From the NCBI GenBank assembly GCA_006386115.1, contig VFIW01000078.1, positions 76,290-140,289 of the forward strand: a stretch of 64,000 nt of DNA. Direction: 5' to 3'. This document shows positions 7,116 to 55,073 of the stretch, one piece after another (position 1 is the stretch's first letter; every line of letters begins with the position of its first letter). Both the position numbers and the translations under genes were made by a program. A model generated the notes under the pieces. The model saw nothing but the letters and a program-made list of their open reading frames with translations, was not told where the DNA came from and did no database searches. The DNA comes from Globisporangium splendens (taxonomy: Eukaryota > Oomycota > Peronosporomycetes > Pythiales > Pythiaceae).

Positions 7116-7529
7116 TTCGGCTGCATCGGGCAGACCTGCCAGCTCCTTGCTGACGCTGCAGACCAAGCAAAGCAGGCGAACCGCAGAGCGCATTTCGCAA
7201 TCTGAAAAAAGAAAGCGTGAGAAAAAAAAGTCAAGATCCCACGATCCGAGAGAGCACACGCAGTACGTGTCCGCAAGAGCGAGAGAACGAAAAAGAAAAA
7301 GAACGTGAAGGAGGAAGAGGAAAAGTGAGCTGCAGCGCGCTGCGACTCGGTGGAGCGTGTCCGCATTGCAGCGCTCGTGAGTTGCATCTGCGCATGTCAT
7401 CAGCGCCATTCATAGTGTCTAAACAGCAATACATATTGTGCACATTCAAACTTGGCGGCTCCAGAATGCGCTTTCGCTGCTCATGTGCGCTTTCCATTCG
7501 AAATGGAGAGCAGCGGTGGTGTGAGTGCC
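7116..7529. other. Intergenic between convergent genes
   Basis: This holds the presumed 3' ends of the tectonin-type gene and the convergent 180-aa gene. There is an A-rich stretch near 7205-7230 and a purine-rich stretch at 7275-7325. No gene seen. Confidence 0.5.
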
Positions 7530-37945: not shown

Positions 37946-37987
37946 CTAGGGTTTAGGGTTTAGGGGTTTAGGGGTTTAGGGTTTAGA
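37946..37987 (+). repeat. Interstitial telomeric tract 1
   Basis: About six TTTAGGG/TTTAGGGG units with the G-rich strand on plus, running into the constant cassette start TTTAGATGCTGTCC. Confidence 0.9.
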
Positions 37988-38009
37988 TGCTGTCCTGTTT
38001 TAAAACGAA

Positions 38010-38038
38010 CCCCACAAATTTCGTAGAAATTTGAGGGG
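38010..38038. other. Conserved hairpin next to telomeric repeat
   Basis: CAAATTTC-GTA-GAAATTTG flanked by CCCC and GGGG with one A-A mismatch. Repeated at the same distance from the TTTAGGG tract in every cassette (about 40695, 43452, 45604, 48186, 52873, 54650). In type B cassettes the mismatch becomes an A-T pair, lengthening the stem. Confidence 0.75.
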
Positions 38039-38944
38039 TTATGTTTTCAAATATGGACAGCAACATGCCGCTATCCACAAATCCGTCTGAGGTCTAGTTC
38101 TCGAGATATAACGAAAAATCTTCAACATTGTCTCATATCTCAAAATCTGACCCCACGATCTCTCTCAAAATATCACCATCGAATTCTACGCCTTTGAAAA
38201 CCCGATATCCGAAAGTTTTAGAAAAGTTAGGTATCTGGTGCTGAGCTATGGCCATCCATTCATTTCTGCTACCTACTGGATTAGGCTATATCGAAAGTAT
38301 TGACTTCTGCTATATCGAGTACTGAGTTAGGCAATGTGAAGAGTATTGATTTAAGCTATCAAAATGTAATGTTTTAGGACATCTTGATCTATTGATTTAT
38401 GACATATATTATGTACTGAAGTAAGCCATCTTGAGTAATGGTTTAGGACATAATACGAGTTGTTTCTAGGACACACAGTGTGCCCACCCAGGATCGAACA
38501 TGGATTGATTGAGGATGTTCCCAAAGCATTGAGTGATACAAAATATCGTGTTGGTCTTGGCTACACAGTGTATTATTTATTTCAACTACACATGTTTTTA
38601 TTGATATAGGTTATATGAACGATTTGGAATGATTCCTGCATTGGTTGTGCACCCCGAGGGTACAATGACGGTGACGACAAATCATTTGGTCCTCTTGCAT
38701 TGCGTGGACATTCTAATTGACTTGATAAATGACTATCCACATAACGCATCGATTAGAATTCTGTCTTCAAGTTGCATCTGATTGGCTGGTTTGTAAATCA
38801 GGCAGCGTGTGACACAGACAGAAGTTCAACCTGAGCAAAAATACGCAGTTGAAGTTGCATCTGAATGGCGACAGTGGACACGATGAAGCGTGTGACACAA
38901 ACAGAGGATATGACAATGCGAAAGTTTTCTTCTTCTTCTTTTAT

Positions 38945-38957
38945 TCATTTCCCAATT
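38945..38957 (+). promoter_or_regulatory. Oomycete initiator, cassette 1
   Basis: TCATTTCCCAATT matches the oomycete Inr (TCATTYYNCAWTT), preceded by a TTC-rich tract and followed 4 nt later by the ATG. Confidence 0.7.
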
Positions 38958-38961
38958 CGCG

Positions 38962-40511
38962 ATGGAAAGCAACAAGTACTCTCAAGTGGCGGAAGCCTTT
39001 ATACCCGACCGTGTCGACATCGACTACGTCGAGATAACCGGCCCGCCGTCATGCCTCGAGGTCATCTCTCGTGCCGAGTTCACTGTCGGGACGTTCAAGC
39101 GCGACCTGTCGAAGCGAAGCGGCCAATACCTTCTGCTGGCATACCAACCGGGGTATGTGTATGTGAAGGTTACTGAAGAACAACGAATGGACATCGTCTT
39201 TGATTTGAGCGTGCGCTTTGGTGTGATTCTCGATCCAAGTCCTGATCCGACGGTTCTTCTGAAGAGCGTGTCAAGAAGAGTTGTCTCGTCCCAGCTAGTG
39301 GATATGCTGGAAGGGATGGAAGTGGCCGAAGTGATCTGTGTGAACTACGGTATGAAGTCGCCGATCCGATTCTACTCGTGGCTTTCGTTGCTCCCACAAG
39401 AGTGCCGCGTGATTGTCGATGTCGGCGTTGAAGATTTGTCGAAGGATGTAGACCTCGTGATTGTGACTCGTTTTACGGGTGGTCCAATGGTCGATCACAT
39501 CTACCACAACTTTGAGCTGTTCAGTGTGGTTCAGTGTGGTGTGGTCCAGCATTTGGGACCTGTTTGATTGAAGCGAAGCGGAACGTGGCGACGAACATGT
39601 TGAAAGCGCGCGTGTACTCGAGTATTGTGCACTCTCTGAAGGCAAACGTGCAAGCAGCGTGGGTTCCGAAGCCTCGTACTGTGAAGGCGTTGCGGCGTTA
39701 CGAAGAGTATTACAAGCGTCTTCCTGTGGCTTATCTTCGTGATGGCGATCGTTGTTGCCTGATTCGCACTGAAATCCGACTCCGCATGCGCTCTTGGGAA
39801 ACGTTGTTGGAAGACTTCGGACGTTTTCGGCGTGAGGTGTACGCGAGGACTGAGTTTCGTCGTCTGAAGTTCGATGAGATTCTGTACTCGATGCCGCAGA
39901 TTCTGGATTGGGCGAAGTCGAAGAACATCTTCCAAGGCTCGGACTCAAGGGGGTGTACGCCTCAGCAAGTTCGTCTGTACCACGTCGTGAACAACTCGCA
40001 CGGTTACGCCGGCAAAGGGTCTCAGAGTGCCATCGACCAGTCTCGTGCTTTGATTGCTGACGCGTACGCGTACTACCAGCAGAAGCGCATTGCAGATGGT
40101 CGTGTGTTTGGCATTGCATCTGGTGTCGAAGAGAACGAAGCGATTGATCTCATCAGCGACTCCGAGGAAGAAGAGAAGATGGATGTGGATGCTGGTCACG
40201 TTCAGTTTGCCGACGAAGTTGAGGTGATCGACCTGATTGATCGTGAAGAGGCTGTCTACGACGATGATGAAGATCTAGTCTCCGAGGAAGAGAGCGACCG
40301 TCGCCAACGACAAACCTCAGTTTCTCTTCGTGATCTGATGTCGGATGTGGAGACCAATCTTCTCATTGTTCGCGAAGGCCGTACGAAATGGTACCAAGTG
40401 AAGAAGCTTAACGGCAATTTGTGGAAGCGTGGGACGTCTCGCGAGTATCTGATCCAGCGTGTAGTTGATGAACTAAAAGGAGATTGGCGTCAACACGTGA
40501 TGTCTAAGTAG
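38962..40511 (+). pseudogene. Telomere-cassette gene, copy 1 (frameshifted)
   Basis: Same product as the intact copy at 41647-43197 but missing one nucleotide near 39541 (ggtgtggtcc versus ggtgtcggtcc), which causes a stop at 39567. The remaining codons stay open in the other frame to 40511. Apart from that the two copies are nearly identical, with only a few substitutions (for example Cys for Tyr near codon 126). The break is thus recent or a sequencing error. Confidence 0.75.
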
Positions 40512-40612
40512 GTTCTGTAGTTGGACTATAGCATAGTGTGGACTTTGAAAGAGAACTGATTGAATAAAGCCGCGAATTTTGGGATTTTAAGTTGAGTGTT
40601 TATGGTTTATAG

Positions 40613-40671
40613 TAGGGTTTAGATGCTAGGATTTAGATGCTAGGATTTAGGGTTTAGGGTTTAGGGTTTAG
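40613..40671 (+). repeat. Interstitial telomeric tract 2
   Basis: Degenerate TTTAGATGCTAGGA units followed by pure TTTAGGG units between cassettes 1 and 2. Confidence 0.9.
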
Positions 40672-41629
40672 ATGCTGTCCTGTTTTAAAACGAACCCCAC
40701 AAATTTCGTAGAAATTTGAGGGGTTATGTTTTCAAATATGGACAGCAACATGCCGCTATCCACAAATCCGTCTGAGGTCTAGTTCTCGAGATATTACGAA
40801 AAATCTTCAACATTGTCTCATATCTCAAAATCTGACCCCACGATCTCTCTCAAAATATCACCATCGAATTCTACGCCTTTGAAAACCCCATATCCGAAAG
40901 TTTTAGAAAAGTTAGGTATCTGGTGCTGAGCTATGGCCATCCATTCATTTCTGCTACCTACTGGATTAGGCTATATCGAAAGTATTGACTTCTGCTATAT
41001 CGAGTACTGAGTTAGGCAATGTGAAGAGTATTGAATTAAGCTATCAAAATGTAATGTTTTAGGACATCTTGATCTCTTGATTTATGACATATATTATGTA
41101 CTGAAGTAAGCCATCTTGAGTAATGGTTTAGGACATAATACGAGTTGTTTCTAGGACACACAGTGTGCCCACCCAGGATCGAACATGGATTGATTGAGGA
41201 TGTTCCCAAAGCATTGAGTGATACAAAATATCGTGTTGGTCTTGGCTACACAGTGTATTATTTATTTCAACTGCACATGTTTTTATTGATATAGGTTATA
41301 TGAACGATTTGGAATGATTCCTGCATTGGTTGTGCACCCCGAGGGTACAATGACGGTGACGACAAATCATTTGGTCCTCTTGCATTGCGTGGACATTCTA
41401 ATTGACTTGATAAATGACTATCCACATAACGTATCGATTAGAATTCTGTCTTCAAGTTGCATCTGATTGGCTGGTTTGTAAATCATGCAGCGTGTGACAC
41501 AGACAGAAGTTCAACCTGAGCAAAAATACGCAGTTGAAGTTGCATCTGAATGGCGACAGTGGACATGATGAAGCGTGTGACACAAACAGAGGATATGACA
41601 ATGCGAAAGTTTTCTTCTTCTTCTTTTAT

Positions 41630-41642
41630 TCATTTCCCAATT
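41630..41642 (+). promoter_or_regulatory. Oomycete initiator, cassette 2
   Basis: TCATTTCCCAATT, 4 nt before the ATG, after a TTC-rich tract. Identical to cassettes 1, 6 and 7. Confidence 0.7.
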
Positions 41643-41646
41643 CGCG

Positions 41647-43197
41647 ATGGAAAGCAACAAGTACTCTCAAGTGGCGGAAGCCTTTATACCCGACCGTGTC
41701 GACATCGACTACGTCGAGATAACCGGCCCGCCGTCATGCCTCGAGGTCATCTCTCGTGCCGAGTTCACTGTCGGGACGTTCAAGCGCGACCTGTCGAAGC
41801 GAAGCGGCCAATACCTTCTGCTGGCATACCAACCGGGGTATGTGTATGTGAAGGTCACTGAAGAGCAACGAATGGACATCGTCTTTGATTTGAGCGTTCG
41901 CTTTGGTGTGATTCTCGATCCAAGTCCTGATCCGACGGTTCTTCTGAAGAGCGTGTCAAGAAGAGTTGTCTCGTCCCAGCTAGTGGATATGCTGGAAGGG
42001 ATGGAAGTGGCCGAAGTGATCTATGTGAACTACGGTATGAAGTCGCCGATCCGATTCTACTCGTGGCTTTCGTTGCTCCCACAAGAGTGCCGCGTGATTG
42101 TCGATGTCGGCGTTGAAGATTTGTCGAAGGATGTAGACCTCGTGATTCTGACTCGTTTTACGGGTGGTCCAATGGTCGATCACATCTACCACAACTTTGA
42201 GTTGTTCAGTGTGGTTCAGTGTGGTGTCGGTCCAGCATTTGGGACCTGTTTGATTGAAGCGAAGCGGAACGTGGCGACGAACATGTTGAAAGCGCGCGTG
42301 TACTCGAGTATTGTACACTCTCTGAAGGCAAACGTGCAAGCAGCGTGGGTTCCGAAGCCTCGTACTGTGAAGGCGTTGCGGCGTTACGAAGAGTATTACA
42401 AGCGTCTTCCTGTGGCTTATCTTCGTGATGGCGATCGTTGTTGCCTGATTCGCACTGAAATCCGACTCCGCATGCGCTCTTGGGAAACGTTGTTGGAAGA
42501 CTTCGGACGTTTTCGGCGTGAGGTGTACGCGAGGACTGAGTTTCGTCGTCTGAAGTTCGATGAGATTCTGTACTCGATGCCGCAGATTCTGGATTGGGCG
42601 AAGTCGAAGAACATCTTCCAAGGCACGGACTCAAGGGGGTGTACGCCTCAGCAAGTTCGTCTGTACCACGTCGTGAACAACTCGCACGGTTACGCCGGCA
42701 AAGGGTCTCAGAGTGCCATCGACCAGTCTCGTGCTTTGATTGCTGACGCGTACGCGTACTACCAGCAGAAGCGCATTGCAGATGGTCGTGTGTTTGGCAT
42801 TGCATCTGGTGTCGAAGAGAACGAAGCGATTGATCTCATCAGCGACTCCGAGGAAGAAGAGAAGATGGATGTGGATGCTGGTCACGTTCAGTTTGCCGAC
42901 GAAGTTGAGGTGATCGACCTGATTGATCGTGAAGAGGCTGTCTACGACGATGATGAAGATCTAGTCTCCGAGGAAGAGAGCGACCGTCGCCAACGACAAA
43001 CCTCAGTTTCTCTTCGTGATCTGATGTCGGATGTGGAGACCAATCTTCTCATTGTTCGCGAAGGCCGTACGAAATGGTACCAAGTGAAGAAGCTTAACGG
43101 CAATTTGTGGAAGCGTGGGACGTCTCGCGAGTATCTGATCCAGCGTGTAGTTGATGAACTAAAAGGAGATTGGCGTCAACACGTGATGTCTAAGTAG
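41647..43197 (+). CDS. Telomere-cassette protein, intact (516 aa), unknown with SIM-like motifs
   Basis: An uninterrupted 516-residue product not assignable to a family. The N-terminal 380 residues look like folded globular domains (DIDYVEITGPP, YQPGYVYVKVTEEQR, RFTGGPMVDHIYHNFELF, RRYEEYYKRLPVAYLRD, MPQILDWAKSKNIF). Residues 393-445 are acidic and contain two SUMO-interaction-type motifs next to acidic runs: EAIDLISDSEEEE (about 393-405) and EVIDLIDREE (about 421-430). A basic C-terminal segment follows (REGRTKWYQVKKL...). No signal peptide, membrane helix, or polymerase or nuclease signature was recognised. It is read from an initiator directly upstream. A nuclear, SUMO-binding, chromatin- or telomere-associated role is only inferred from motifs and location. 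Confidence 0.75.
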   Translation: MESNKYSQVAEAFIPDRVDIDYVEITGPPSCLEVISRAEFTVGTFKRDLSKRSGQYLLLAYQPGYVYVKVTEEQRMDIVFDLSVRFGVILDPSPDPTVLLKSVSRRVVSSQLVDMLEGMEVAEVIYVNYGMKSPIRFYSWLSLLPQECRVIVDVGVEDLSKDVDLVILTRFTGGPMVDHIYHNFELFSVVQCGVGPAFGTCLIEAKRNVATNMLKARVYSSIVHSLKANVQAAWVPKPRTVKALRRYEEYYKRLPVAYLRDGDRCCLIRTEIRLRMRSWETLLEDFGRFRREVYARTEFRRLKFDEILYSMPQILDWAKSKNIFQGTDSRGCTPQQVRLYHVVNNSHGYAGKGSQSAIDQSRALIADAYAYYQQKRIADGRVFGIASGVEENEAIDLISDSEEEEKMDVDAGHVQFADEVEVIDLIDREEAVYDDDEDLVSEEESDRRQRQTSVSLRDLMSDVETNLLIVREGRTKWYQVKKLNGNLWKRGTSREYLIQRVVDELKGDWRQHVMSK

Positions 43198-43298
43198 GTT
43201 CTGTAGTTGGACTATAGCATAGTGTGGACTTTGAAAGAGAACTGATTGAATAAAGCCGCGAACTTTTGGGATTTTAGTTGAGTGTTTATGGTTTATAG

Positions 43299-43431
43299 TA
43301 GGGTTTAGATGCTAGGATTTAGATGCTAGGATTTAGGGTTTAGGGTTTAGGGTTTAGATGCTGTCCTGTTTTAAAACGAACCCCACAAATTAGGGTTTAG
43401 GGGCCCTAGGGTTTAGGGTTTAGGGTTTAGA
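43299..43431 (+). repeat. Telomeric tract 3 with a 35-bp cassette stub
   Basis: A TTTAGGG run, then only about 35 bp of a type A start (atgctgtcctg...ccccacaaatt), which is cut in the middle of the hairpin by a second TTTAGGG run containing the inverted junction TTTAGGGGCCCTAGGG. Confidence 0.85.
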
Positions 43432-44140
43432 TGCTGTCCCGTTTGAAAACTAGCCACACAAATTTCGTAGAAATTTGTGGGGGTATGTTTTCAACGACGG
43501 GCAGCATCTCGGCGAAAACGAGAAATCTGCCGAAATTTTACTTTTTGAGATATAACGAAAAAACTGAAAAAATGTCGCATTGCACAAAAACAAGCCACAC
43601 AATCTTTCTCAAACTTTCACCATCGTTTTCTACGCCATTGAAAACCCCATATCCGAAAGTTTTAGAAACGAGAAGTTTTTGGTGCCGAGCTATCGCCATC
43701 CATTCAATTTTGAAATGTACTGGATTAAGCTATATAGAAAGTATTGACTTATGCTATATCGAGTACTGAGTTAGGCAATATTTGAAGTATTGACTTAAGC
43801 TATAAAATCTAATGATTTAGGACATATCAATCTATTGATTTATGACATTTATAATGTAATGAAGTAAGCCATTTTGTGCAATAGGTAGCCTATAACATGC
43901 ATTATTTGGACTCCCAAAAGGAAGAGTGACGACGACGACAAATCATTTGATCCTCGTGTATTGAGTGGACATTCTGATTGGCTGCTTTGTAAATCAGGCA
44001 GCGTGTGACACAAACAGAAGTTCAACGTGTACAAAAATACGCAGATGAAGTTGCATCTGAATGGCGACAGTGGACATGATGAAGCGTGTGACACATACAG
44101 AGCTTATGACAATGCGAAAGTTTTCTTCTTCTTCTACCAT

Positions 44141-44153
44141 TCATTTTCCAATT
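44141..44153 (+). promoter_or_regulatory. Oomycete initiator, cassette 4
   Basis: TCATTTTCCAATT fits the initiator consensus. A one-base variant of the type A version at the same distance from ATG. Confidence 0.65.
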
Positions 44154-44157
44154 CGCG

Positions 44158-44280
44158 ATGGAAAGCAACAAGTACTCTGAAGCGGCAGCGCATGTATATT
44201 CGAAATACTCAGCAGGTTCGTATGAGACTTGTGCAGATGTGGGATTGTGCTCCGCCTGCTTGAGCTACCAATATTCCTGA
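44158..44280 (+). CDS. 40-aa ORF sharing the cassette-gene start (type B)
   Basis: Begins MESNKYS like the 516-aa protein, then diverges (EAAAHVYSKYSAG...) and stops after 40 codons. The cysteine-containing end has no match seen. It may be a decayed stub of the cassette gene or the first exon of a different spliced product. An identical copy lies at 46310-46432. Confidence 0.35.
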   Translation: MESNKYSEAAAHVYSKYSAGSYETCADVGLCSACLSYQYS

Positions 44281-45546
44281 TGTGAGCAAGTCGAAGCATG
44301 ACATTGGTGACTGATGCATGGAAGGCAACAGCAACGAGTGTGATATGAGTGTTAGTAAACATGTAGAGTGCGAGATTGTATGAAAGTTTGTGTACCTGCG
44401 TAACTGTAACGATGCAACACGATGTGGTACCTCCTGACATGTATACATACACTGTACCACTTCAATGATCATCGTGTCTGCGCAGACTCAATACTCATCA
44501 ACATTTGTATACAATGTCGGACACACTTGTTTGTTGTTTGATGGAGCGCGCGAGCAACATATCATGTGTGTGAAGTAGATATGGTGACACCTCAAGTATG
44601 TATATGGATGTGATGTTGAGAGAAGAACCACGTAAAGTGAATTTGTATGACATTATGTGAGAATAAGACTACAAATGCAAAAATGTGAATTCTAGTGTCG
44701 TACATATCGTATGGTTTGTGATGATGATACTGATGAATGTGAGTAGATGTATATTGTGTGCGCGAAGAGGAACTCACGAAGCATACAACATAAGTAGCTG
44801 AGTTGTTTGTTTGTGACTGCTGCAGTGTCGAGTGAAGTGTGATCCGTGACATGGTGTGTTGAGTGTGTGAAGAGCTGGGCAGTGTGGGTGTAAGTGGATA
44901 TTCCAAAGTGGTGTGAAGTATCATACATTGTAGATGGTATTGTGATTGGTGATATTTGGAATGAGTGTGTGAGTGAATGACAAAAGGGTACTGAGACAAC
45001 AAGAAGGATGATAGGAGTGTTTGGAAACATGCCGAGTGCGAGATTGTATGAAAGTTTGTGTATCTGAGTAACTGTAATGATCACTGTGTCTGCGCAGACT
45101 CGATACTCATCAACATTTGTGTGGAATGTCGGACACATGGATAAAAGTGAGCAAATGTATATTGTGTGTGCTGACAGGAACCCACGAAGCATACAACATA
45201 AGTAGCTGAGTTGTTTGTTTGTGACTGCTGTAGTGTCGAGTGAAGTGTGATCCGTGACATGTTGTGTTGCGTGTGTAAAGAGCCGGGCAGTGTGATTGCG
45301 AGTAAATATCCGAAAGTGGCGTGGAGTATCGTCGAGTGTTGGTGGTGTTGTGATTGTTGAAGTTTGGTATGAACAGTTGAGTATGTGTGAGTATATGAGA
45401 AGTGGGAAATGAGACATCAACGAGGGTGATCGATCGAGTTTTGTCGAAGACATCATTGAGGGTGATAAAATATATGTTGATGAAGAGAGCATCGATGGTG
45501 ATAAAAAATATTTTGTCGAAGACAGCATCGAGGGTGAGAGAGTGAA
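44281..45546. repeat. Type B cassette body with internal tandem repeats
   Basis: TG-rich DNA in which a segment of about 420-430 bp (attgtatgaaagtttgtgta... to ...gggtactgagacaac) occurs in degenerate tandem copies. No frame is conserved between copies, so it is treated as non-coding. Confidence 0.65.
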
Positions 45547-45581
45547 TTAGGGTCTAGGGTTAGTTGAGGGTTTAGGGTTTA
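45547..45581 (+). repeat. Interstitial telomeric tract 4
   Basis: Degenerate TTTAGGG run between the two type B cassettes. Confidence 0.85.
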
Positions 45582-46292
45582 GATGCTGTCCCGTTTGAAA
45601 ACTAGCCACACAAATTTCGTAGAAATTTGTGGGGGTATGTTTTCAACGACGGGCAGCATCTCGGCGAAAACGAGAAATCTGCTGAAATTTTACTTTTTGA
45701 GATATAACGAAAAAACTGAAAAAATGTCGCATTGCACAAAAACAAGCCACACAATCTTTCTCAAAATCTCACCATCGTTTTCTACGCCATTGAAAACCCC
45801 ATATCCGAAAGTTTTAGAAACGAGAAGTTTTTGGTGCCGAGCTATCGCCATCCATTCAATTTTGAAATGTACTGGATTAAGCTATATCGAAAGTATTGAC
45901 TTATGCTATATCGAGTACTGAGTTAGGCAATATTTGAAGTATTGACTTAAGCTATAAAATCTAATGATTTAGGACATATCAATCTATTGATTTATGACAT
46001 TTATAATGTAATGAAGTAAGCCATTTTGTGCAATAGGTAGCCTATAACATGCATTATTTGGACTCCCAAAAGGAAGAGTGACGACGACGACAAATCATTT
46101 GATCCTCGTGTATTGAGTGGACATTCTGATTGGCTGCTTTGTAAATCAGGCAGCGTGTGACACAAACAGAAGTTCAACGTGTACAAAAATACGCACTTGA
46201 AGTTGCATCTGAATGGCGACAGTGGACATGATGAAGCGTGTGACACATACAGAGCTTATGACAATGCGAAAGTTTTCTTCTTCTTCTACCAT

Positions 46293-46305
46293 TCATTTTC
46301 CAATT
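46293..46305 (+). promoter_or_regulatory. Oomycete initiator, cassette 5
   Basis: TCATTTTCCAATT, identical to cassette 4. Confidence 0.65.
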
Positions 46306-46309
46306 CGCG

Positions 46310-46432
46310 ATGGAAAGCAACAAGTACTCTGAAGCGGCAGCGCATGTATATTCGAAATACTCAGCAGGTTCGTATGAGACTTGTGCAGATGTGGGATTGT
46401 GCTCCGCCTGCTTGAGCTACCAATATTCCTGA
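46310..46432 (+). CDS. 40-aa ORF sharing the cassette-gene start (copy 2)
   Basis: Identical to 44158-44280. Conservation of the short frame in both type B cassettes is uninformative because the cassettes are nearly identical throughout. Confidence 0.33.
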   Translation: MESNKYSEAAAHVYSKYSAGSYETCADVGLCSACLSYQYS

Positions 46433-48105
46433 TGTGAGCAAGTCGAAGCATGACATTGGTGACTGATGCATGGAAGGCAACAGCAACGAGTGTGATATGA
46501 GTGTTAGTAAACATGTAGAGTGCGAGATTGTATGAAAGTTTGTGTACCTGCGTAACTGTAACGATGCAACACGATGTGGTACCTCCTGACATGTATACAT
46601 ACACTGTACCACTTCAATGATCATCGTGTCTGCGCAGACTCAATACTCATCAACATTTGTATACAATGTCGGACACACTTGTTTGTTGTTTGATGGAGCG
46701 CGCGAGCAACATATCATGTGTGTGAAGTAGATATGGTGACACCTCAAGTATGTATATGGATGTGATGTTGAGAGAAGAACCACGTAAAGTGAATTTGTAT
46801 GACATTATGTGAGAATAAGACTACAAATGCAAAAATGTGAATTCTAGTGTCGTACATATCGTATGGTTTGTGATGATGATACTGATGAATGTGAGTAGAT
46901 GTATATTGTGTGCGCGAAGAGGAACTCACGAAGCATACAACATAAGTAGCTGAGTTGTTTGTTTGTGACTGCTGTAGTGTCGAGTGAAGTGTGATCCGTG
47001 ACATGGTGTGTTGAGTGTGTGAAGAGCTGGGCAGTGTGGGTGTAAGTGGATATTCCAAAGTGGTGTGAAGTATCATACATTGTAGATGGTATTGTGATTG
47101 GTGATATTTGGAATGAGTGTGTGAGTGAATGACAAAAGGGTACTGAGACAACAAGAAGGATGATAGGAGTGTTTGGAAACATGCCGAGTGCGAGATTGTA
47201 TGAAAGTTTGTGTATCTGAGTAACTGTAATGATCACTGTGTCTGCGCAGACTCGATACTCATCAACATTTGTGTGGAATGTCGGACACATGGATAAAAGT
47301 GAGCAAATGTATATTGTGTGTGCTGACAGGAACTCACGAAGCATACAACATAAGTAGCTGAGTTGTTTGTTTGTGACTGCTGTAGTGTCGAGTGAAGTGT
47401 GATCCGTGACATGGTGTGTTGAGTGTGTGAAGAGCTGGGCAGTGTGGGTGTAAGTGGATATTCCAAAGTGGTGTGAAGTATCATACATTGTAGATGGTAT
47501 TGTGATTGGTGATATTTGGAATGAGTGTGTGAGTGAATGACAAAAGGGTACTGAGACAACAAGAAGGATGATAGGAGTGTTTGGAAACATGCGAGTGCGA
47601 GATTGTATGAAAGTTTGTGTATCTGAGTAACTGTAATGATCACTGTGTCTGCGCAGACTCGATACTCATCAACATTTGTGTGGAATGTCGGACACATGGA
47701 TAAAAGTGAGCAAATGTATATTGTGTGTGCTGACAGGAACTCACGAAGCATACAACATAAGTAGCTGAGTTGTTTGTTTGTGACTGCTGTAGTGTCGAGT
47801 GAAGTGTGATCCGTGACATGTTGTGTTGCGTGTGTAAAGAGCCGGGCAGTGTGATTGCGAGTAAATATCCGAAAGTGGCGTGGAGTATCGTCGAGTGTTG
47901 GTGGTGTTGTGATTGTTGAAGTTTGGTATGAACAGTTGAGTATGTGTGAGTATATGAGAAGTGGGAAATGAGACATCAACGAGGGTGATCGATCGAGTTT
48001 TGTCGAATACATCATTGAGGGTGATAAAATATATGTTGATGAAGAGAGCATCGAGGGTGATAAAAAATATTTTGTCGAAGAGAGCATCGAGGGTGAGAGA
48101 GTGAA

Positions 48106-48162
48106 TTAGGGTTAGTTGATAATAGGGTTTAGGGGCCCTAGGGTTTAGGGTTTAGGGTTTAG
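48106..48162 (+). repeat. Interstitial telomeric tract 5 with inverted junction
   Basis: Contains TTTAGGGGCCCTAGGG, a G-strand/C-strand meeting point, before the constant cassette start. Confidence 0.88.
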
Positions 48163-49119
48163 ATGCTGTCCTGTTTAAAACGAACCCCACAAATTTCGTA
48201 GAAATTTGAGGGGTTATGTTTTCAAATATGGACAGCAACATGCGCTATCCACAAATCCGTCTGAGGTCTAGTTCTCGAGATATTACGAAAAATCTTCAAA
48301 CATTGTCTCATATCTCAAAATCTGACCCCACGATCTCTCTCAAAATATCACCATCGAATTCTACACCATTGAAAACCCCATATCCGAAAGTTTTAGAAAA
48401 GTTAGGTATCTGGTGCTGAGCTATGGCCATCCATTCATTTCTGCTACCTACTGGATTAGGCTATATCGAAAGTATTGACTTCTGCTATATCGAGTACTGA
48501 GTTAGGCAATGTGAAGAGTATTGAATTAAGCTATCAAAATGTAATGTTTTAGGACATCTTGATCTCTTGATTTATGACATATATTATGTACTGAAGTAAG
48601 CCATCTTGAGTAATGGTTTAGGACATAATACGAGTTGTTTCTAGGACACACAGTGTGCCCACCCAGGATCGAACATGGATTGATTGAGGATGTTCCCAAA
48701 GCATTGAGTGATACAAAATATCGTGTTGGTCTTGGCTACACAGTGTATTATTTATTTCAACTGCAGATGTTTTTATTGATATAGGTTATATGAACGATTT
48801 GGAATGATTCTTGCATTGGTTGTGCACCCCGAGGGTACAATGACGGTGACGACAAATCATTTGGTCCTCTTGCATTGCGTGGACATTCTAATTGACTTGA
48901 TAAATGACTATCCACATAACGCATCGATTAGAATTCTGTCTTCAAGTTGCATCTGATTGGCTGGTTTGTAAATCATGCAGCGTGTGACACAGACAGAAGT
49001 TCAACCTGAGCAAAAATACGCAGTTGAAGTTGCATCTGAATGGCGACAGTGGACACGATAAAGCGTGTGACACAAACAGAGGATATGACAATGCGAAAGT
49101 TTTCTTCTTCTTCTTTTAT

Positions 49120-49132
49120 TCATTTCCCAATT
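49120..49132 (+). promoter_or_regulatory. Oomycete initiator, cassette 6
   Basis: TCATTTCCCAATT, 4 nt before the ATG. Confidence 0.7.
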
Positions 49133-49136
49133 CGCG

Positions 49137-50705
49137 ATGGAAGCTCTTCGGTATTCTCAGGCTGCAAGGGGAGGGCCTGACACGTCCTACGACATCGACT
49201 ATGTCGAGATCACGGGACCGCCCAAATTTCTCGAGGAAATAACGAAGCTCGAGTTTACCGTCGGAGCATTCAAACACGCTATTTCCAAGACAAAGGATGA
49301 CTACCTGTTGGTCGCGTACCAGCCGGGATACGTTTATGCCAAGGTTACGGAGGAGCAGCGAACGAGTATCGTCCGTGGCCTTTCTTGGCACTTTCGAGTG
49401 ACGTTGGAGAAAAGCCTCGATCCCACAGTGCTGCTCAAGAGTGTGACTCGTCGGATCACGTCAGCCGGGCTCGTCATGCTCCTTGCCGATTACGCCGAGC
49501 TGAGCGAAATCGTCTACATCAACTACGGGATGAAGGCTGATTTTAATGACTACTCATGGCTGAGCAGCCTTCCACCGCAGTGCAAGGTGACGGTCGATGT
49601 CGGCGTCGATGATGTTTGTACCATTGGAGACCACGCGGTTCTTTGTCGCTTTACCGGTGGTCCGATGATCGACCACATCTATCGGAACTATGAGCTGTTC
49701 ACTGTACTTCAGTTCGGTGAAGGGTTGGCGTTTGGTACGTGTGTGATGAATGCCCGACGTAACAATCCGACTCAAATGGTGAAGGCTCGAGTGTATTCGA
49801 AGATTGTACACTCTCTGAAGGCGAATGTGCAAGCTGAATTTGGACCAAGCCCGCGCAAAATGAAGATCCTCCGTCGTTATGAGAACTACTACAAGCGCAT
49901 TCCGGTGGCATACCTTCGCGACATTTCTACGTGTGAAGATTTGCGTACTGAGATTCGCCTCCGGATGCGATCTTTCGATACCTTGATTGCTGATTTTGAG
50001 AAGTGGCGCACCCAAGTTTACTCACGATTGGAATTTCGACGAATGTCGCTGCCTGAGATCATGTATTCAATGCCGCAGATTCTCGACTGGGCAAAATCGA
50101 AGAACGTGTTCCAGGGCAATAACAATGTTGGTTGTTCGCGCCTGCAAGTCCAATTGTACCACATCCTGAATAATTCGCATGGATACGCAGGCATGGGTTC
50201 GGTGGCGAGCATTAACAAGTCGCGAGAATTGATTGCCCAAGCCTCCCAGTTTTACCAAGCCAAGCGAGCGAGTGATGGGTATGCTTTTGGATATGCACGA
50301 AACGACACTGTCGACGAGGTGATTGAAGTGATGAGCGATTCTGAAGAAGAGGAATCCAAGATGGACGTTGATGCGGGTTATGTTCAAATTGTTAACCCAG
50401 TGGAAGTGATCGATTTGATCAATGATGAAGTTTATGACGACAGTAGTGGTGATGACGAAGGCGAACTATCTGAAGATTCAAGTGAACGTCGTCAACGTTA
50501 TGCGCCGGTTCCCCCTGCCAGGCTTCGCGCTGATGTCGAGCGTCATTTGTTCATTGTGCAAGAAGGGCGTGCCCAGAAGTTCAACGTGCGCACCACTGGT
50601 GGAAGTATTTGGGCGCGTGCCGCGACGAGGGAGAGCCTGATCGATCGCGTTGTCGAAGACCTTGGAGAGAACTGGCGTGAGTATGTGATGATGGTAGGGT
50701 GGTAA
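49137..50705 (+). CDS. Telomere-cassette protein, diverged paralog (522 aa)
   Basis: Intact 522-residue paralog of 41647-43197, roughly 60% identical by eye over the globular part. DYVEITGPP, YQPGYVYAKVTEEQR, RFTGGPMIDHIYRNYELF, YYKRIPVAYLRD and MPQILDWAKSKNVF are all kept. The acidic region retains the second SIM-type motif (VEVIDLINDE) and a weaker first one (EVIEVMSDSEEEE). Conservation of the fold and frame despite this divergence indicates selection for a protein, although flanking DNA is nearly invariant. The last residues (MMVGW) differ. Function unknown. Confidence 0.75.
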   Translation: MEALRYSQAARGGPDTSYDIDYVEITGPPKFLEEITKLEFTVGAFKHAISKTKDDYLLVAYQPGYVYAKVTEEQRTSIVRGLSWHFRVTLEKSLDPTVLLKSVTRRITSAGLVMLLADYAELSEIVYINYGMKADFNDYSWLSSLPPQCKVTVDVGVDDVCTIGDHAVLCRFTGGPMIDHIYRNYELFTVLQFGEGLAFGTCVMNARRNNPTQMVKARVYSKIVHSLKANVQAEFGPSPRKMKILRRYENYYKRIPVAYLRDISTCEDLRTEIRLRMRSFDTLIADFEKWRTQVYSRLEFRRMSLPEIMYSMPQILDWAKSKNVFQGNNNVGCSRLQVQLYHILNNSHGYAGMGSVASINKSRELIAQASQFYQAKRASDGYAFGYARNDTVDEVIEVMSDSEEEESKMDVDAGYVQIVNPVEVIDLINDEVYDDSSGDDEGELSEDSSERRQRYAPVPPARLRADVERHLFIVQEGRAQKFNVRTTGGSIWARAATRESLIDRVVEDLGENWREYVMMVGW

Positions 50706-50775
50706 GAACTGATCTGTTACCAGTATCTTAGATGACTGAAGCGAATAAAATCACGAAATTTTGGGATTAATGAGT

Positions 50776-51194
50776 TTAATGCGATGACACTAATGGTTCT
50801 GTCTGGTGGTGAGATCGACTGTGTTGACGTGTGAATTGACTTGTAGACAGGCGCGTAGAGAGGTGTACAGACAAAAATGAGTCAGTCTACCGGTGTGTCA
50901 GACAGGGTTGCCATGTGAATAAAAGAGGCTTTGTCTGCTGATGAGACAGAGAAGATTATGCTTTGACGTTGTTTCCTAACCGCGAACGTGTGTATCCAAG
51001 GAATAATCCCATCCGTCTGACATTGTAACGACTGATACGTGCTAAGCAACCTCGGTGGTGATCTCTCCGGCAACTTAACTCAGTCTAGGCTTAGAGGAGC
51101 GCTTCCCTTGCGGGAGACGTATAGAGCACCAGTCTGACCTGTGGCTCCAACCCCAATGCAGAGCTTATACACGACAATTACCGCAAGGACAACG
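50776..51194. other. Intergenic, no clear gene
   Basis: 3' flank of cassette 6 and unrelated sequence. Around 51090-51150 a tRNA-like fragment (agaggagcgcttcccttgcgggag) is visible but incomplete. Confidence 0.4.
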
Positions 51195-51262
51195 TCAGTG
51201 TGCACCAAATGTGGTTTGAAAATCCTGCTTCATCACAGGTGCTCTACCGTTGAGCGACAAAT
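51195..51262 (-). pseudogene. Degenerate tRNA-like sequence
   Basis: The minus strand keeps a D-arm-like GCTCAACGGTAGAGC and an anticodon-arm-like CCTGTGATGAAGCAGG, but the T arm and acceptor stem do not pair properly. Probably a tRNA pseudogene next to the better-preserved tRNA at 51277. Confidence 0.4.
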
Positions 51263-51276
51263 CACATTCAGAATTA

Positions 51277-51349
51277 TGTGCCAGGCGGGATTTGAACCCG
51301 CGCCACCTGTGTAGAACACTGGCGCTCTAACCATATGAGCGACTGGCAC
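51277..51349 (-). tRNA. tRNA, probably Arg (UCU)
   Basis: A full 73-nt cloverleaf: acceptor GTGCCAG with CTGGCAC plus discriminator A, D stem GCTC/GAGC, anticodon stem CCAGT/ACAGG with one A-A mismatch around loop GTTCTAC, a 4-nt variable loop, and T stem GCGGG/CCCGC with loop TTCAAAT. Standard numbering puts TCT at 34-36 (Arg AGA). G at position 32 is unusual. No intron. Confidence 0.75.
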
Positions 51350-51387
51350 ATATGAAAATAGCGTCATGTAATATCATCTAGCATTTC

Positions 51388-51460
51388 ATTTTTATATCTA
51401 TATCTATATCTATATCTATATCTATATCTATATCTATATATATATCTATATCTATATCTA
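51388..51460. repeat. (TATATC)n microsatellite
   Basis: About twelve tandem hexamers TATATC with a short TA interruption, running directly into a TTTAGGG tract at 51461. Confidence 0.9.
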
Positions 51461-51488
51461 GGGTTTAGGGTTTAGGGTCCCTAAACAG
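51461..51488 (+). repeat. Telomeric tract 6 with head-to-head junction
   Basis: Three TTTAGGG units, then TCCCTAAA, that is TTTAGGGTCCCTAAA, followed by caggtcatcgaagtatagtg, which recurs after a similar junction at 55010. Confidence 0.9.
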
Positions 51489-51894
51489 GTCATCGAAGTA
51501 TAGTGAAGTCCAGATAAACCGGAGCACGCATCTCGGCTTCTCCATGTCGTGACCTTTTTGGCTCGGATTTCCTATTTCAATGCTCCGTGTCATGTCTGCG
51601 GTTCTTTTTTTCGCAAAAATGTCGTGACCTTTTTGGCTCGGAATTGCTAATAAACTGCTCCGAATACAAATGTCAAGTCATGTTGCTCACATACAAAAAA
51701 AAACAACAAGTCACTGGGTTTCGTGCGAGGGTTTACCGTACTGTCGAACAGAAAATAAAACACCAACAGCCAATCAAAACACTGCATTCACAAACCCTCG
51801 CCAATCCGAGTCGAGAGACCTGCACTACACTTGCAAAGAGTATACCATACAAAAAACAAGTGACTTTTGGACAGAAAAAGGACACGACACTATA
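51489..51894. other. Repeat-derived intergenic sequence
   Basis: Contains two copies of atgtcgtgacctttttggct (51543 and 51617) and scattered ATACAAA...CAAGTCA motifs. No gene. Confidence 0.45.
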
Positions 51895-52345
51895 CAAACT
51901 ACAAGTCACTGGGTTTAGCAGACACACTACACCACATACAAACTCCAAGTCACTGCACCACATACAAACTCCAAGTCACTGGGCTTAGCAGCACACCATA
52001 CAAACACCAAGTCACTGCACCACATACAAACTCCAAGTCACTGGGTTAGCAGCACACCATACAAACCAAGTCACTGCACCACATACAAACTCCAAGTCAC
52101 TGCACCACATACAAACTCCAAGTCACTGGGCTTAGCAGCACACCATACAAACTCCAAGTCACTGCACCACATACAAACTCCAAGTCACTGGGTTCAGCAG
52201 CACACCATACAAACTCCAAGTCACTGCACCACATACAAACTCCAAGTCACTGGGTTCAGCAGCACACCATACAAACACCAAGTCACTGCACCACATACAA
52301 ACTCCAAGTCACTGGGTTTAGCAGCACACCATACAAACATCAAGT
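51895..52345. repeat. Minisatellite of ATACAAACTCCAAGTCACTG units
   Basis: About 16 copies of the 20-bp core, arranged as alternating spacers (caccac / ggtttagcagcacac), giving a composite period near 62 bp. The core matches the wider TACAAA-nnn-CAAGTCA motif of this window. Confidence 0.88.
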
Positions 52346-52769
52346 CATCCTCACGAGCTGAAACTTTGGTCAACGGTGCAACAAAACACGGCGAATCCGA
52401 ATACAGTAGTGTGCGACAAAGAAAGTGCAGTGCACCTCCAAGAATGCATACTCTGCGTTCGTGCTGCCTACGACGTGGGTCACTATACCCACACTGGTAC
52501 AACGACATGGTCGTATGTAGTTTGATGTGGGGAATCCGAATATGAAGTCGTATGTCATAAAAAGCGCAGTCTAGGTGTTGGTTTTATTGCAATCCGACAA
52601 ATGTGTGTGTAAGTCGGCAGTTTTGAGTGTGTGGTTATGGTAGAAGGCGTGGCGAGTGCTTGTGTGTGTGAAGTGAGTGTTGTTGAAGGTGATCGTGTGT
52701 GCGTTGTGTGTGTGAAGTGAAGTACCAAGTTTAAAGATTTGACAGTCACACGTTTTCATTCCAGCATGG
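52346..52769. other. Degenerate repeat sequence
   Basis: Includes pieces related to repeat R (gcgaatccgaata, ggggaatccgaatatgaagtc) and a TGTG-rich segment (52600-52725). No gene. Confidence 0.4.
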
Positions 52770-52817
52770 TGCAGTGGTTTGCAGTTGAGTTTCCAAGCCT
52801 GAGGTCACTGGTTCGAA
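52770..52817 (+). pseudogene. tRNA-like sequence cut at its B box by telomeric repeat
   Basis: agcatggtgcagtggtt resembles a pol III A box, and ggtcactggttcga starts a T arm. The T loop is interrupted after TTCGA by AGGGTTTAGGG. A tRNA or tRNA-derived SINE whose 3' part was replaced by telomere repeat. Confidence 0.45.
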
Positions 52818-52853
52818 GGGTTTAGGGTTTAGGGTTTAGGGTTTAGGGTTTAG
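52818..52853 (+). repeat. Interstitial telomeric tract 7
   Basis: Five perfect TTTAGGG units, the purest tract in the window. Confidence 0.92.
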
Positions 52854-53811
52854 ATGCTGTCCTGTTTTAAAACGAACCCCACAAATTTCGTAGAAATTTG
52901 AGGGGTTATGTTTTCAAATATGGACAGCAACATGCCGCTATCCACAAATCCGTCTGAGGTCTAGTTCTCGAGATATAACGAAAAATCTTCAACATTGTCT
53001 CATATCTCAAAATCTGACCCCACGATCTCTCTCAAAATATCACCATCGAATTCTACGCCATTGAAAACCCCATATCCGAAAGTTTTAGAAAAGTTAGGTA
53101 TCTGGTGCTGAGCTATGGCCATCCATTCATTTCTGCTACCTACTGGATTAGGCTATATCGAAAGTATTGACTTCTGCTATATCGAGTACTGAGTTAGGCA
53201 ATGTGAAGAGTATTGAATTAAGCTATCAAAATGTAATGTTTTAGGACATCTTGATCTCTTGATTTATGACATATATTATGTACTGAAGTAAGCCATCTTG
53301 AGTAATGGTTTAGGACATAATACGAGTTGTTTCTAGGACACACAGTGTGCCCACCCAGGATCGAACATGGATTGATTGAGAATGTTCCCAAAGCATTGAG
53401 TGATACAAAATATCGTGTTGGTCTTGGCTACACAGTGTATTATTTATTTCAACTGCACATGTTTTTATTGATATAGGTTATATGAACGATTTGGAATGAT
53501 TCCTGCATTGGTTGTGCACCCCGAGGGTACAATGACGGTGACGACAAATCATTTGGTCCTCTTGCATTGCGTGGACATTCTAATTGACTTGATAAATGAC
53601 TATCCACATAACGCATCGATTAGAATTCTGTCTTCAAGTTGCATCTGATTGGCTGGTTTGTAAATCATGCAGCGTGTGACACAGACAGAAGTTCAACCTG
53701 AGCAAAAATACGCAGTTGAAGTTGCATCTGAATGGCGACAGTGGACACGATAAAGCGTGTGACACAAACAGAGGATATGACAATGCGAAAGTTTTCTTCT
53801 TCTTCTTTTCT

Positions 53812-53824
53812 TCATTTCCCAATT
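53812..53824 (+). promoter_or_regulatory. Oomycete initiator, cassette 7
   Basis: TCATTTCCCAATT, 4 nt before the ATG. Confidence 0.7.
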
Positions 53825-53828
53825 CGCG

Positions 53829-54620
53829 ATGGAAACAAACAAGTACTCTCAAGTGGCGGAAGCCTTTATACCCGACCGTGTCGACATCGACTACGTCGAG
53901 ATAACCGGCCCGCCGTCATGCCTCGAGGTCATCTCTCGTGCCGAGTTCACTGTCGGGACGTTCAAGCGCGACCTGTCGAAGCGAAGCGGCCAATACCTTC
54001 TGCTGGCATACCAACCGGGGTATGTGTATGTGAAGGTTACTGAAGAGCAACGAATGGACATCGTCTTTGATTTGAGCGTTCGCTTTGGTGTGATTCTCGA
54101 TCCAAGTCCTGATCCGACGGTTCTTCTGAAGAGCGTGTCAAGAAGAGTTGTCTCGTCCCAGCTAGTGGATATGCTGGAAGGGATGGAAGTGGCCGAAGTG
54201 ATTTACGTGAACTACGGTATGAAGTCGCCGATCCGATTCTACTCGTGGCTTTCGTTGCTCCCACAAGAGTGCCGCGTGATTGTCGATGTCGGCGTTGAAG
54301 ATTTGTCGAAGGATGTAGACCTCGTGATTGTGACTCGTTTTACGGGTGGTCCAATGGTCGATCACATCTACCACAACTTTGAGCTGTTCAGTGTGGTTCA
54401 GTGTGGTGTTGGTCCAGCATTTGGGACCTGTTTGATTGAAGCGAAGCGGAACGTGGCGACGAACATGTTGAAAGCGCGCGTGTACTCGAGTATTGTGCAC
54501 TCTCTGAAGGCAAACGTGCAAGCAGCGTGGGTTCCGAAGCCTCGTACTGTGAAGGCGTTGCGGCGTTACGAAGAGTATTACAAGCGTCTTCCTGTGGCTT
54601 ATCTAGGGTTTAGGGTTTAG
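53829..54620 (+). pseudogene. Telomere-cassette gene cut in half by telomeric repeat
   Basis: Nearly identical to the first 259 codons of the 516-aa protein (to LPVAYL). Then the reading enters agggtttaggg and stops at 54620. The acidic SIM region and C-terminus are lost. The junction, gcttatct/agggtttaggg, has only one or two bases of overlap with the telomere repeat, as expected for telomere addition to a broken end. Confidence 0.85.
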
Positions 54621-54627
54621 GGTTTAG
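54604..54627 (+). repeat. Interstitial telomeric tract 8
   Basis: Three TTTAGGG units between the broken gene and a type B start. Confidence 0.92.
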
Positions 54628-54997
54628 ATGCTGTCGCGTTTGAAAACTAGCCACACAAATTTCGTAGAAATTTGTGGGGGTATGTTTTCAACTACGCGCA
54701 GCATCTCGGCGAAAACGAGAAATCTGCCGAAATTGTAGTTTTTGAGATATTACGAAAAAACCGAAAAAATGTCGCATTGCGCAAAAACTAGCCACACAAT
54801 CTTTCTGAAACTTCAACCATCGTTTTCTACGCCATTGAAAACCCCATATCCGAAAGTTTTAGAAACGAGAAGTTTTTGGTGCCGAGCTGTCGCCATCCAT
54901 TCAAATTTGCAATGTACTGGATTAGGATATATCGAAAGTATTGACTTCTGCTATATCGAGTACTGAGTTAGGCAATGTGTAGAGTATTGATTTAAGC
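54604..54997 (+). repeat. Telomere-delimited cassette 8 (type B start only)
   Basis: About 370 bp of type B start (hairpin present), then cut at gatttaagct by the next telomeric tract. Confidence 0.82.
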
Positions 54998-55073
54998 TAG
55001 GGTTTAGGGACCCTAAACAGGTCATCGAAGTATAGTGAAGTCCAGATAGGGTTTAGGGTTTAGGGGCCCTAAA
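54998..55073 (+). repeat. Telomeric tracts 9 and 10 with two inverted junctions
   Basis: Contains TTTAGGGACCCTAAA, then 37 bp also found after tract 6 (caggtcatcgaag...), cut by another TTTAGGG run ending TTTAGGGGCCCTAAA before repeat R. Confidence 0.9.

What the first reader, a model, noticed from the sequence alone, without database searches (positions are those of the whole stretch)
37946..55073. Telomere-repeat-delimited gene cassettes encoding an unrecognised SIM-bearing protein
At least seven units start with the identical TTTAGATGCTGTCC right after a TTTAGGG tract. Complete units carry a hairpin, about 0.9 kb of conserved upstream DNA, an oomycete initiator and one gene for a protein of about 516-522 aa that I cannot place in any family. 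Copies are intact, diverged, frameshifted or truncated. All G-rich strands point the same way. This could be a subtelomeric gene family that spreads by telomeric recombination, or a mobile unit that targets telomeres. The constant left ends and variable right ends would fit an element inserted by target-primed reverse transcription on the minus strand, or ends healed by telomerase. The acidic EAIDLISDSEEEE and EVIDLIDREE motifs suggest SUMO binding.
Basis: partly seen in the sequence, partly recalled or inferred. Interest (0 to 1): 0.88.

Follow-up and report, generated by a model that had tools for sequence, protein, structure and literature searches.

The report
Telomere-attached gene cassettes in an oomycete
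Chromosome ends of the water mould Globisporangium splendens carry chains of cassettes with one fixed end and one ragged, telomere-capped end; some carry an orphan gene, and they look like units copied onto chromosome ends by reverse transcription, beside a telomeric retroelement that could supply the enzyme.

Summary
The window is from Globisporangium splendens. The left end TTTAGATGCTGTCC occurs 73 times in the genome (control 0) and points to the nearer contig end each time. Right ends are ragged and capped by TTTAGGG. The 516/522-aa genes are orphans (12 intact of 27 match rows). The two forms are deeply diverged (61.6% DNA identity, omega about 0.15), yet the 0.98 kb upstream is 99% identical; identity stops at the start codon.
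New here: (1) the same arrays hold a Penelope-like reverse transcriptase, no endonuclease domain found, with hammerhead-like ends, its 3' end towards the centromere. (2) 15 of 52 distinct closed cassettes stop within 9-37 nt, none at 41-144; the Penelope element leaves such stubs too (13 and about 36 nt). (3) The terminal hairpin covaries, mostly through one diverged copy. (4) Three copies join non-telomeric DNA at TTTAGATG, one at a 6-nt match.
Best reading (0.55): non-autonomous, terminon-like retro-units, copied onto chromosome 3' ends from minus-strand RNA, capped by telomerase, later shuffled by recombination. The gene lies antisense to that RNA. Main rival: DNA-only telomere recombination (Y'-like). 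RNA evidence is missing; the protein's function, including SUMO binding, stays unknown.

The parts
37947..37981 (+). telomeric tract at the proximal edge of the array
37982..40612 (+). cassette 1, A-type, gene frameshifted
40618..40640 (+). two 9-nt head stubs (TTTAGATGC) within the telomeric tract; repeated at 43304-43326
40667..43298 (+). cassette 2, A-type, complete unit
40673..40747 (+). terminal hairpin (three stacked helices) of cassette 2; would be the 3'-terminal fold of a minus-strand RNA
   Evidence: on other heads of the family; placed here by alignment of the head
41647..43197 (+). 516-aa orphan gene, intact
43353..43389 (+). 37-nt head stub followed by TTAGGG
43426..45566 (+). B-type unit: head, linker, promoter region and gene start, then an unrelated body without the gene
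45578..48122 (+). second B-type unit
48158..51458 (+). cassette C, with the 522-aa gene and captured downstream DNA including a tRNA
49137..50705 (+). 522-aa paralogue, intact
51277..51349 (-). tRNA inside the captured DNA of cassette C (Rfam tRNA, 57.9 bits)
51459..52817 (+). telomeric tract, TTTAGGGTCCCTAAA junction and captured tandem-repeat DNA, before the next telomeric tract
52849..54603 (+). A-type cassette cut off inside the gene and capped by TAGGG (1755 nt)
54623..54997 (+). short E-type unit (375 nt), capped by TAGGG
54998..55071 (+). distal telomeric tract with a second TTTAGGGACCCTAAA junction

Best explanation
The cassettes are non-autonomous telomere-attached retro-units of the terminon kind. 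Inferred cycle: an RNA is read from the minus strand, towards the centromere. Its 3' end carries the terminal hairpin, then GGACAGCAUCUAAA and about one CCCUAAA. That end pairs with the 3' G-rich overhang of a chromosome (or, rarely, with another 3' end that happens to read TTTAG). A reverse transcriptase without endonuclease, most simply the Penelope-like one resident in the same arrays, extends the chromosome and often stops within 40 nt. Telomerase then caps the ragged end. Repeated rounds build chains, and recombination between like units reshuffles and amplifies them. The 516/522-aa gene has 0.98 kb of upstream DNA inside the unit and lies on the strand opposite to the proposed template, so the unit would be ambisense. 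Shown: fixed left end, ragged capped right ends, stubs, covarying hairpin, co-resident reverse transcriptase with hammerhead-like ends, selection on the gene. Inferred: the RNA intermediate, which enzyme copies it, that the upstream DNA is a promoter, and what the protein does.
For: All 73 exact heads point to the nearer contig end (counted by hand). Of 76 left junctions in fetched DNA, 35 have two or more exact repeats directly before the head, 21 one, 16 a partial or imperfect repeat and 4 none. Ragged right ends: of 62 closed heads 17 stop at 40 nt or less, 0 at 41-144 and 45 at 145 or more (distinct: 15, 0 and 37 of 52); uniform truncation over 2637 nt gives p about 1e-15. A Penelope-like reverse transcriptase lies in the same arrays with its sense away from the nearer end on 7 of 7 contigs (length of C189 not seen, that of C146 inferred), 40% identical over 614 aa to a protein with RVT_1, with hammerhead-like motifs at 7 places in fetched DNA and 0 in the reversed control (fold). 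This element leaves stubs of 13 nt (L014) and about 36 nt (L012) itself. The hairpin covaries: 6 pairs change on both sides against 1.9 in shuffles, 0 of 500 shuffles reach it. In L032 the cassette joins a repeat at CAGTTTAGA, where the 5 other copies in hand read on without a cassette: a 6-nt match to the cassette's start. In L023 one TTTAGGG separates broken repeat DNA from the head; the window and L014 hold the uninterrupted form. A telomerase RNA-binding domain is encoded in the genome. Of 52 distinct caps 16 read ..C|TAGG and others share up to 4 nt with the unit, as reported for MoTeRs (passages of PMC7367193).
Against: No RNA evidence. Cassette heads share no sequence with the Penelope ends beyond TTTA, and no hammerhead was found in the cassettes of L009-L030 and the window (a loose core search of L031-L034 gave one match, outside the cassette). 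The gene is antisense to the supposed RNA. Tandem A units in the window share identical junctions including the 9-nt stubs, so part of the array grew by recombination. Five of the six two-sided hairpin changes rest on one head (L014), and a structure slid by 3 columns reaches the same 9 changed cells. A hairpin alone is weak evidence: 29% of random 63-nt window pieces have a stem of 7 bp or more, 14% of 8 or more. The join in L034 has no TTTAG match in its uninterrupted relative, and no uninterrupted copy was found for L018 or L025. One Penelope end of 24, C58:51389, does not point to the nearer contig end.
Confidence: 0.55

Rival explanations
1. DNA-only telomere recombination, like yeast Y' elements: an eroded end with TTTAGGG invades a tract between units and copies DNA (break-induced replication). 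Units always begin at a tract, erosion and telomerase make the ragged right ends, and early collapse of the copying makes the stubs.
For: Tract-separated tandem units in one orientation. Identical junctions in the tandem A units and three consecutive 1179-bp units on C170, identical at 1166-1178 of 1179 positions and matched by one on C117, need recombination or copying between ends. The same left context (..ggttcgaa + tract) precedes an A-type unit in the window and a C-type unit in L013. Mosaic units occur.
Against: Left ends exactly at TTTAGATG next to non-telomeric DNA in L018, L032 and L034 show an end belonging to the element, not to the tract. Stubs of 9-37 nt with none at 41-144 need very frequent early collapse. 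The neighbouring Penelope element, an RNA-copied kind, leaves similar stubs (two cases).
Confidence: 0.3
2. Telomerase itself, not the Penelope enzyme, copies the cassette RNA or reads beyond its own template, so stubs and cassettes are telomerase products.
For: Stubs sit seamlessly inside telomeric tracts; a telomerase domain is encoded (with one TGA in the matched frame). There is precedent for insertion of retrotranscribed telomerase RNA at breaks in rodents (PMC2246262, outline and section 15 read).
Against: No telomerase-RNA-like locus was seen: the exact CATCTAAACCCTAAA matches lie on contigs that carry arrays, so simple read-through of a single-copy telomerase RNA is not supported. A telomerase RNA with a shorter match would have been missed.
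Confidence: 0.11
3. Assembly artefact: a hybrid MaSuRCA assembly stitched repeats and telomeric reads.
For: The same contig holds a 10.7-kb palindrome of 99.7% identity that looks like an unsplit long read. The assembly is a PacBio plus Illumina draft (PMC7163027, whole text).
Against: Independent contigs show many different junctions with one fixed left end. Intact genes under selection and a covarying hairpin are not made by misassembly.
Confidence: 0.04

Closest known systems
Terminons (Athena-type, endonuclease-deficient Penelope-like elements at bdelloid rotifer telomeres)
   Same: Units attached by their 3' side to G-rich telomeric repeats, 5'-truncated by telomeric repeats, in chains with captured host DNA; a terminal RNA fold next to C-rich repeats (passages of PMC6431247). 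The resident G. splendens reverse transcriptase unit fits this description.
   Different: The cassettes carry no reverse transcriptase and no hammerhead; their gene is on the opposite strand, whereas terminon genes are described as co-oriented (recalled; the primary paper is not held).
MoTeR1/MoTeR2 of Magnaporthe oryzae
   Different: MoTeR2 shares 860 bp and 77 bp of terminal sequence with its autonomous partner; the cassettes share none with the Penelope unit. MoTeR1 has a putative restriction-like endonuclease.
Yeast Y' elements and telomere-linked helicase genes
   Same: Subtelomeric gene units in one orientation, separated by telomeric tracts (recalled; RecQ helicases at M. graminicola telomeres and Y' elements in passages of PMC4522978).
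   Different: No helicase or any other known domain in the 516/522-aa protein; ragged right ends; some left ends off the tract.
Telomerase-RNA insertions at rodent double-strand breaks
   Same: Endonuclease-independent reverse transcription at a broken end with short matches and telomeric repeats (PMC2246262, section 15).
   Different: There the template is the telomerase RNA and the insertions are internal, not chains at chromosome ends.

Membership tests
Terminon / endonuclease-deficient telomeric Penelope-like element (resident unit on C90, C98, C118, C146, C175, C189) | Penelope-type reverse transcriptase | tested here: met
   40% identity over 614 aa to P0004, which has RVT_1 at 2e-11; motifs LYTNIP, GTAMGTPAAP and YGRYLDD seen (motif names recalled). 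The protein itself has no Pfam match at E up to 1. No tree was built.
Terminon / endonuclease-deficient telomeric Penelope-like element (resident unit) | no GIY-YIG endonuclease | tested here: inconclusive
   No Pfam domain in the 1005-aa frame, but that search also missed the reverse transcriptase, and the rest of the unit was not profiled.
Terminon / endonuclease-deficient telomeric Penelope-like element (resident unit) | hammerhead motif next to C-rich telomeric repeats at the RNA 3' end | tested here: met
   7 motif matches, 0 in reversed control; stems I and III in the predicted fold. Rfam gave no hammerhead match in L021, and the scan did not report the second family on L029, so this rests on motif and fold.
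Terminon (the cassettes) | encodes a reverse transcriptase | tested here: not met
   no known domain in the only gene.
Terminon (the cassettes) | hammerhead at the 3' end | tested here: not met
   (L009-L030 and window); no Rfam hammerhead in 37800-55300.
Terminon (the cassettes) | attached by a fixed end to G-rich telomeric repeats, other end ragged and capped | tested here: met
MoTeR2-like non-autonomous partner (the cassettes) | terminal sequences shared with the autonomous element | tested here: not met
   Heads and Penelope ends share only TTTA after the tract, by eye.
Y' element / telomere-linked helicase | encodes a helicase | tested here: not met
Y' element | spreads by telomere recombination | tested here: inconclusive
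   Identical tandem junctions support it for part of the array; non-telomeric left ends speak against it as the sole cause.

The most novel reading that the evidence does not exclude
An ambisense telomeric retro-unit: the minus-strand RNA is the template that is copied onto chromosome ends, while the plus strand carries a conserved orphan protein gene with its own upstream region. The protein would be maintained by selection because it helps the unit persist at telomeres, and the stubs would be a fossil record of aborted telomere-primed copying.
Probability: 0.35. Interest if true: 0.82.

Novelty: new variant of a known kind. Interest (0 to 1): 0.62.

Why it matters
If right, Penelope-type telomeric retroelements of an oomycete coexist with telomerase and with parasitic cassettes that carry a host-like or selfish gene family, so chromosome ends become places where genes are copied and spread. 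The 9-37-nt stubs give a direct, sequence-only readout of how often telomere-primed copying aborts, which could be looked for in any long-read genome. The 516/522-aa family is a selected orphan with no relative found outside this species. I found no report of such units in oomycetes in the listings of eight searches of the open-access library; the two primary papers on telomeric Penelope elements are not held, so prior mention there cannot be excluded.

Tried and rejected
Telomerase RNA as source of the head (read-through beyond its template): the exact matches to the would-be template flank lie on array-bearing contigs, so not supported. Hammerhead in the cassette: none. Minus-strand frames in B-type bodies as genes: low-complexity, not pursued. 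Structure of the 516-aa protein: mean pLDDT 35, pTM 0.27 with 4 sequences, unusable, so no fold search was run. Weak PDB matches to PpsR (E 0.094 and worse) and one PHROG at 0.29 judged chance. Relatives in the viral collection: none confirmed. Rfam miRNA matches to the hairpin in L021 are below gathering scores and judged generic long-hairpin matches. Shared hairpins of Penelope ends and cassettes as evidence of kinship: chance rate too high. Hypothesis that L034 also joined at a TTTAG match: not supported by its relative on C72.

Dropped rows: L001-L008 overlap later loci and were left out of the counts. The 20 loci (L009-L028), later L029-L034 and the window are what the junction counts rest on; L034 was loaded after and is not in its 76. 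About 20 further array-bearing stretches asked for were not obtained as asked; some were fetched later in part. The end-calling script has four hand-set stub ends, because their telomeric tracts are imperfect. Two of the 20 distinct 110-nt heads listed (both from L019, with internal deletions) were left out of the hairpin alignment. The hairpin registers were chosen by eye from the folds, with the diverged L014 head in view.
Full report
WHERE IT IS. The window is contig C175:76290-140289 of a 53.3-Mb, 195-contig genome. Protein hits name it Globisporangium splendens, and the draft paper gives 53.3 Mb from a MaSuRCA hybrid assembly (PMC7163027, whole text). The contig is 221,182 bases long and ends in a TTTAGGG array. 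The array of the finding is about 90-107 kb inside that contig. A second array and a Penelope-like unit lie at the contig's end.

THE FIXED LEFT END. TTTAGATGCTGTCC occurs 73 times in the genome, 52 on + and 21 on -, with 0 for the reversed control. All 73 point to the nearer contig end; 64 of 73 are within 15 kb of it, and the nine others are seven in the window, C71:75096 and C88:34326 (hand count; lengths, that of C146 inferred, that of C130 not seen). In fetched DNA, 76 sites with TTTAGATGC had enough upstream sequence: 35 follow two or more exact TTTAGGG, 21 one, 16 a partial or imperfect repeat, 4 none. Two of the four none-cases lie in worn tracts (L014:5158, L019:2697). The other two (L018:4015, L032:1994 of the reversed locus) and a later one (L034:3186, a head variant) adjoin non-telomeric DNA. 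In C90 (reversed L021, position 623) and in C184 (L001), a unit runs straight into the next head through ATTAG; on C90 the upstream unit is B-type.

THE RAGGED RIGHT END. Units were followed to the first telomeric run. Of 77 heads, 62 close within the fetched DNA and 15 do not. Lengths: 17 are 40 nt or less, 0 are 41-144, 45 are 145 or more; after removing repeats of the same junction, 15, 0 and 37 of 52. Uniform truncation over 2637 nt would put about 1.5% below 40 nt (p about 1e-15). That null is crude: healing may prefer ends close to an old telomeric tract. Of the 52 distinct caps, 16 read ..C|TAGG and 11 ..A|TAGGG; where a reference runs on beyond the cut, 0-4 nt are shared with the telomeric frame. 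In MoTeRs 17 of 23 truncations had such seeds, and five of the six others ended in C (passages of PMC7367193). The ragged ends are therefore best read as telomerase-capped.

WHAT LIES WITHIN. Units share a head of about 460 bp (A against B about 80%), a variable linker, a block just before the start codon (A against B 92-94%), then a gene or another body. The A- and C-type genes differ at 38% of bases (dN 0.36, dS about 2.4, omega about 0.15; differences by codon position 158, 135 and 299 of 514 each), but the 0.98 kb upstream are identical at 971 of 981 aligned columns, with the break at ATGGAA. So two old paralogues have come to share one recent upstream module. dS is saturated, so omega is rough, but the excess at third positions shows that the protein has been kept. 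In the genome there are 27 match rows, 12 of them full length without stops, all on contigs with arrays or heads. The protein has no Pfam or NCBIfam match, no credible PHROG match and no usable fold. In 5.8 billion proteins only three clusters matched, the window's own and two of G. splendens, with about 8000 candidates scored in each of two searches. The acidic IDL motifs are partly conserved between paralogues. That they bind SUMO is recalled motif lore, untested; so is the oomycete initiator.

THE TERMINAL HAIRPIN. The first 88 nt of four heads fold far better than shuffles (z -4.4 to -9.2; three heads on both strands, one on the minus strand only). On 18 distinct heads 92.8% of cells pair, and 6 pairs change on both sides against 1.9 in shuffles (0 of 500 reach it); slid versions give 1 or 2 such pairs, although a slide of +3 reaches the same 9 changed cells. 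Five of the six pairs rest on one diverged head (L014); the sixth on four cells. The structure was drawn by eye from a few of these sequences, so the slid control leans in its favour. The test does not tell RNA from DNA, nor one strand from the other.

THE RESIDENT REVERSE TRANSCRIPTASE. Between cassettes on C90 and C98 lie units whose minus strand encodes a Penelope-type reverse transcriptase. It has 25 match rows on 7 contigs, with its sense away from the nearer contig end on all 7 (length of C189 not seen), including the end of the window's own contig. One of the seven, on C71, is a second family (47% identical) that sits directly behind a B-type end. The ends of the first family occur 24 times, one of which (C58:51389) does not point to the nearer end. 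The seven non-stub ends in L021, L022 and L030 carry a hammerhead-like motif (0 in the reversed control), with stems I and III in the predicted fold; Rfam did not report it in L021, and the scan did not report the second family. This agrees with published terminons, in which a hammerhead adjoins C-rich repeats at the RNA 3' end (passages of PMC6431247). The first family also leaves stubs inside telomeric tracts: 13 nt in L014 and about 36 nt in L012.

HOW IT PROBABLY WORKS. In L032 a cassette starts exactly where a dispersed repeat reads CAGTTTAGA; the five other copies of that repeat in hand run on without a cassette. The first six letters of the cassette match, which suggests pairing at a 3' end. 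In L023 broken repeat DNA ends in TTGG, then a single TTTAGGG, then the head, while the window and L014 hold the uninterrupted form. These joins fit a template that ends in ..GCATCTAAACCCTAAA and is copied from a free 3' end. RNA copied by an endonuclease-less reverse transcriptase is the simplest such template, because one is present and leaves the same kind of stub. DNA copied by break-induced replication remains possible, and identical tandem junctions, the C170 and C117 units of 1179 bp and mosaic units show that recombination or end-to-end copying acts too.

WHAT IS NOT SHOWN. No transcript was seen. Nothing shows that the Penelope enzyme copies the cassettes: their ends share no sequence with its own beyond TTTA. 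The gene is antisense to the supposed template, so its contribution is a guess. The interior place of the window array could be an assembly join, since the same contig carries a suspicious palindrome.

NOVELTY. Telomeric Penelope elements are described in bdelloid rotifers (passages of PMC6431247) and in the fungus M. graminicola, where Penelope elements in general are said to occur in plants and heterokonts too (passages of PMC4522978). Telomeric partners without reverse transcriptase are known in Magnaporthe, and telomeric retrotransposons in Fusarium (PMC12857005, abstract and outline only). The telomere-to-telomere oomycete paper has no hit for 'subtelomer' or 'Penelope' in its main text; it does speak of segmental duplications and LINE/SINE elements near telomeres (term search and passages). 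A gene-bearing cassette with the gene on the anti-template strand, a covarying non-hammerhead terminal hairpin and a stub record would be a new variant of that kind.

Noticed in passing
window 1-21763: A 10.7-kb inverted repeat (99.7% identical arms, about 390-bp spacer, 21 gap openings), most likely an unsplit long read or other assembly artefact; the genes there appear twice.
   Followed up: partly
window 51471 and 55003: TTTAGGG(T/A)CCCTAAACAGG: telomeric repeat meets its inverse, like a fusion point, followed both times by the same sequence.
   Followed up: no
window 43400-43411, 48132-48143 and 55063-55073; several loci: Recurring GGGGCCCTAGGG or GGGGCCCTAAA inside telomeric tracts, possibly a foldback product.
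   Followed up: no
window 21840-24401: Protease, reverse transcriptase and RNase H of an LTR-type retrotransposon (Pfam RVP_2, RVT_1, RT_RNaseH) next to the palindrome.
   Followed up: no
L033 (C170) 4711-8247 and L027 (C117) 5340-6518: Three consecutive 1179-bp cassettes, cut at the same point of the gene and capped with four repeats, with an identical one on another contig: recent spread of one truncated unit.
   Followed up: partly
L029 (C71) around 2500: Second Penelope-like family (47% identical protein) whose end also abuts a worn telomeric tract after a B-type unit and shows a hammerhead-like core by eye.
   Followed up: partly
G000:C111:238756-239070: Telomerase RNA-binding domain (PF12009, 55.8 bits, one TGA in the matched frame, perhaps an intron), so telomerase is very likely present.
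   Followed up: no
window 5436-7115: Tectonin-domain gene inside the palindrome.
   Followed up: no
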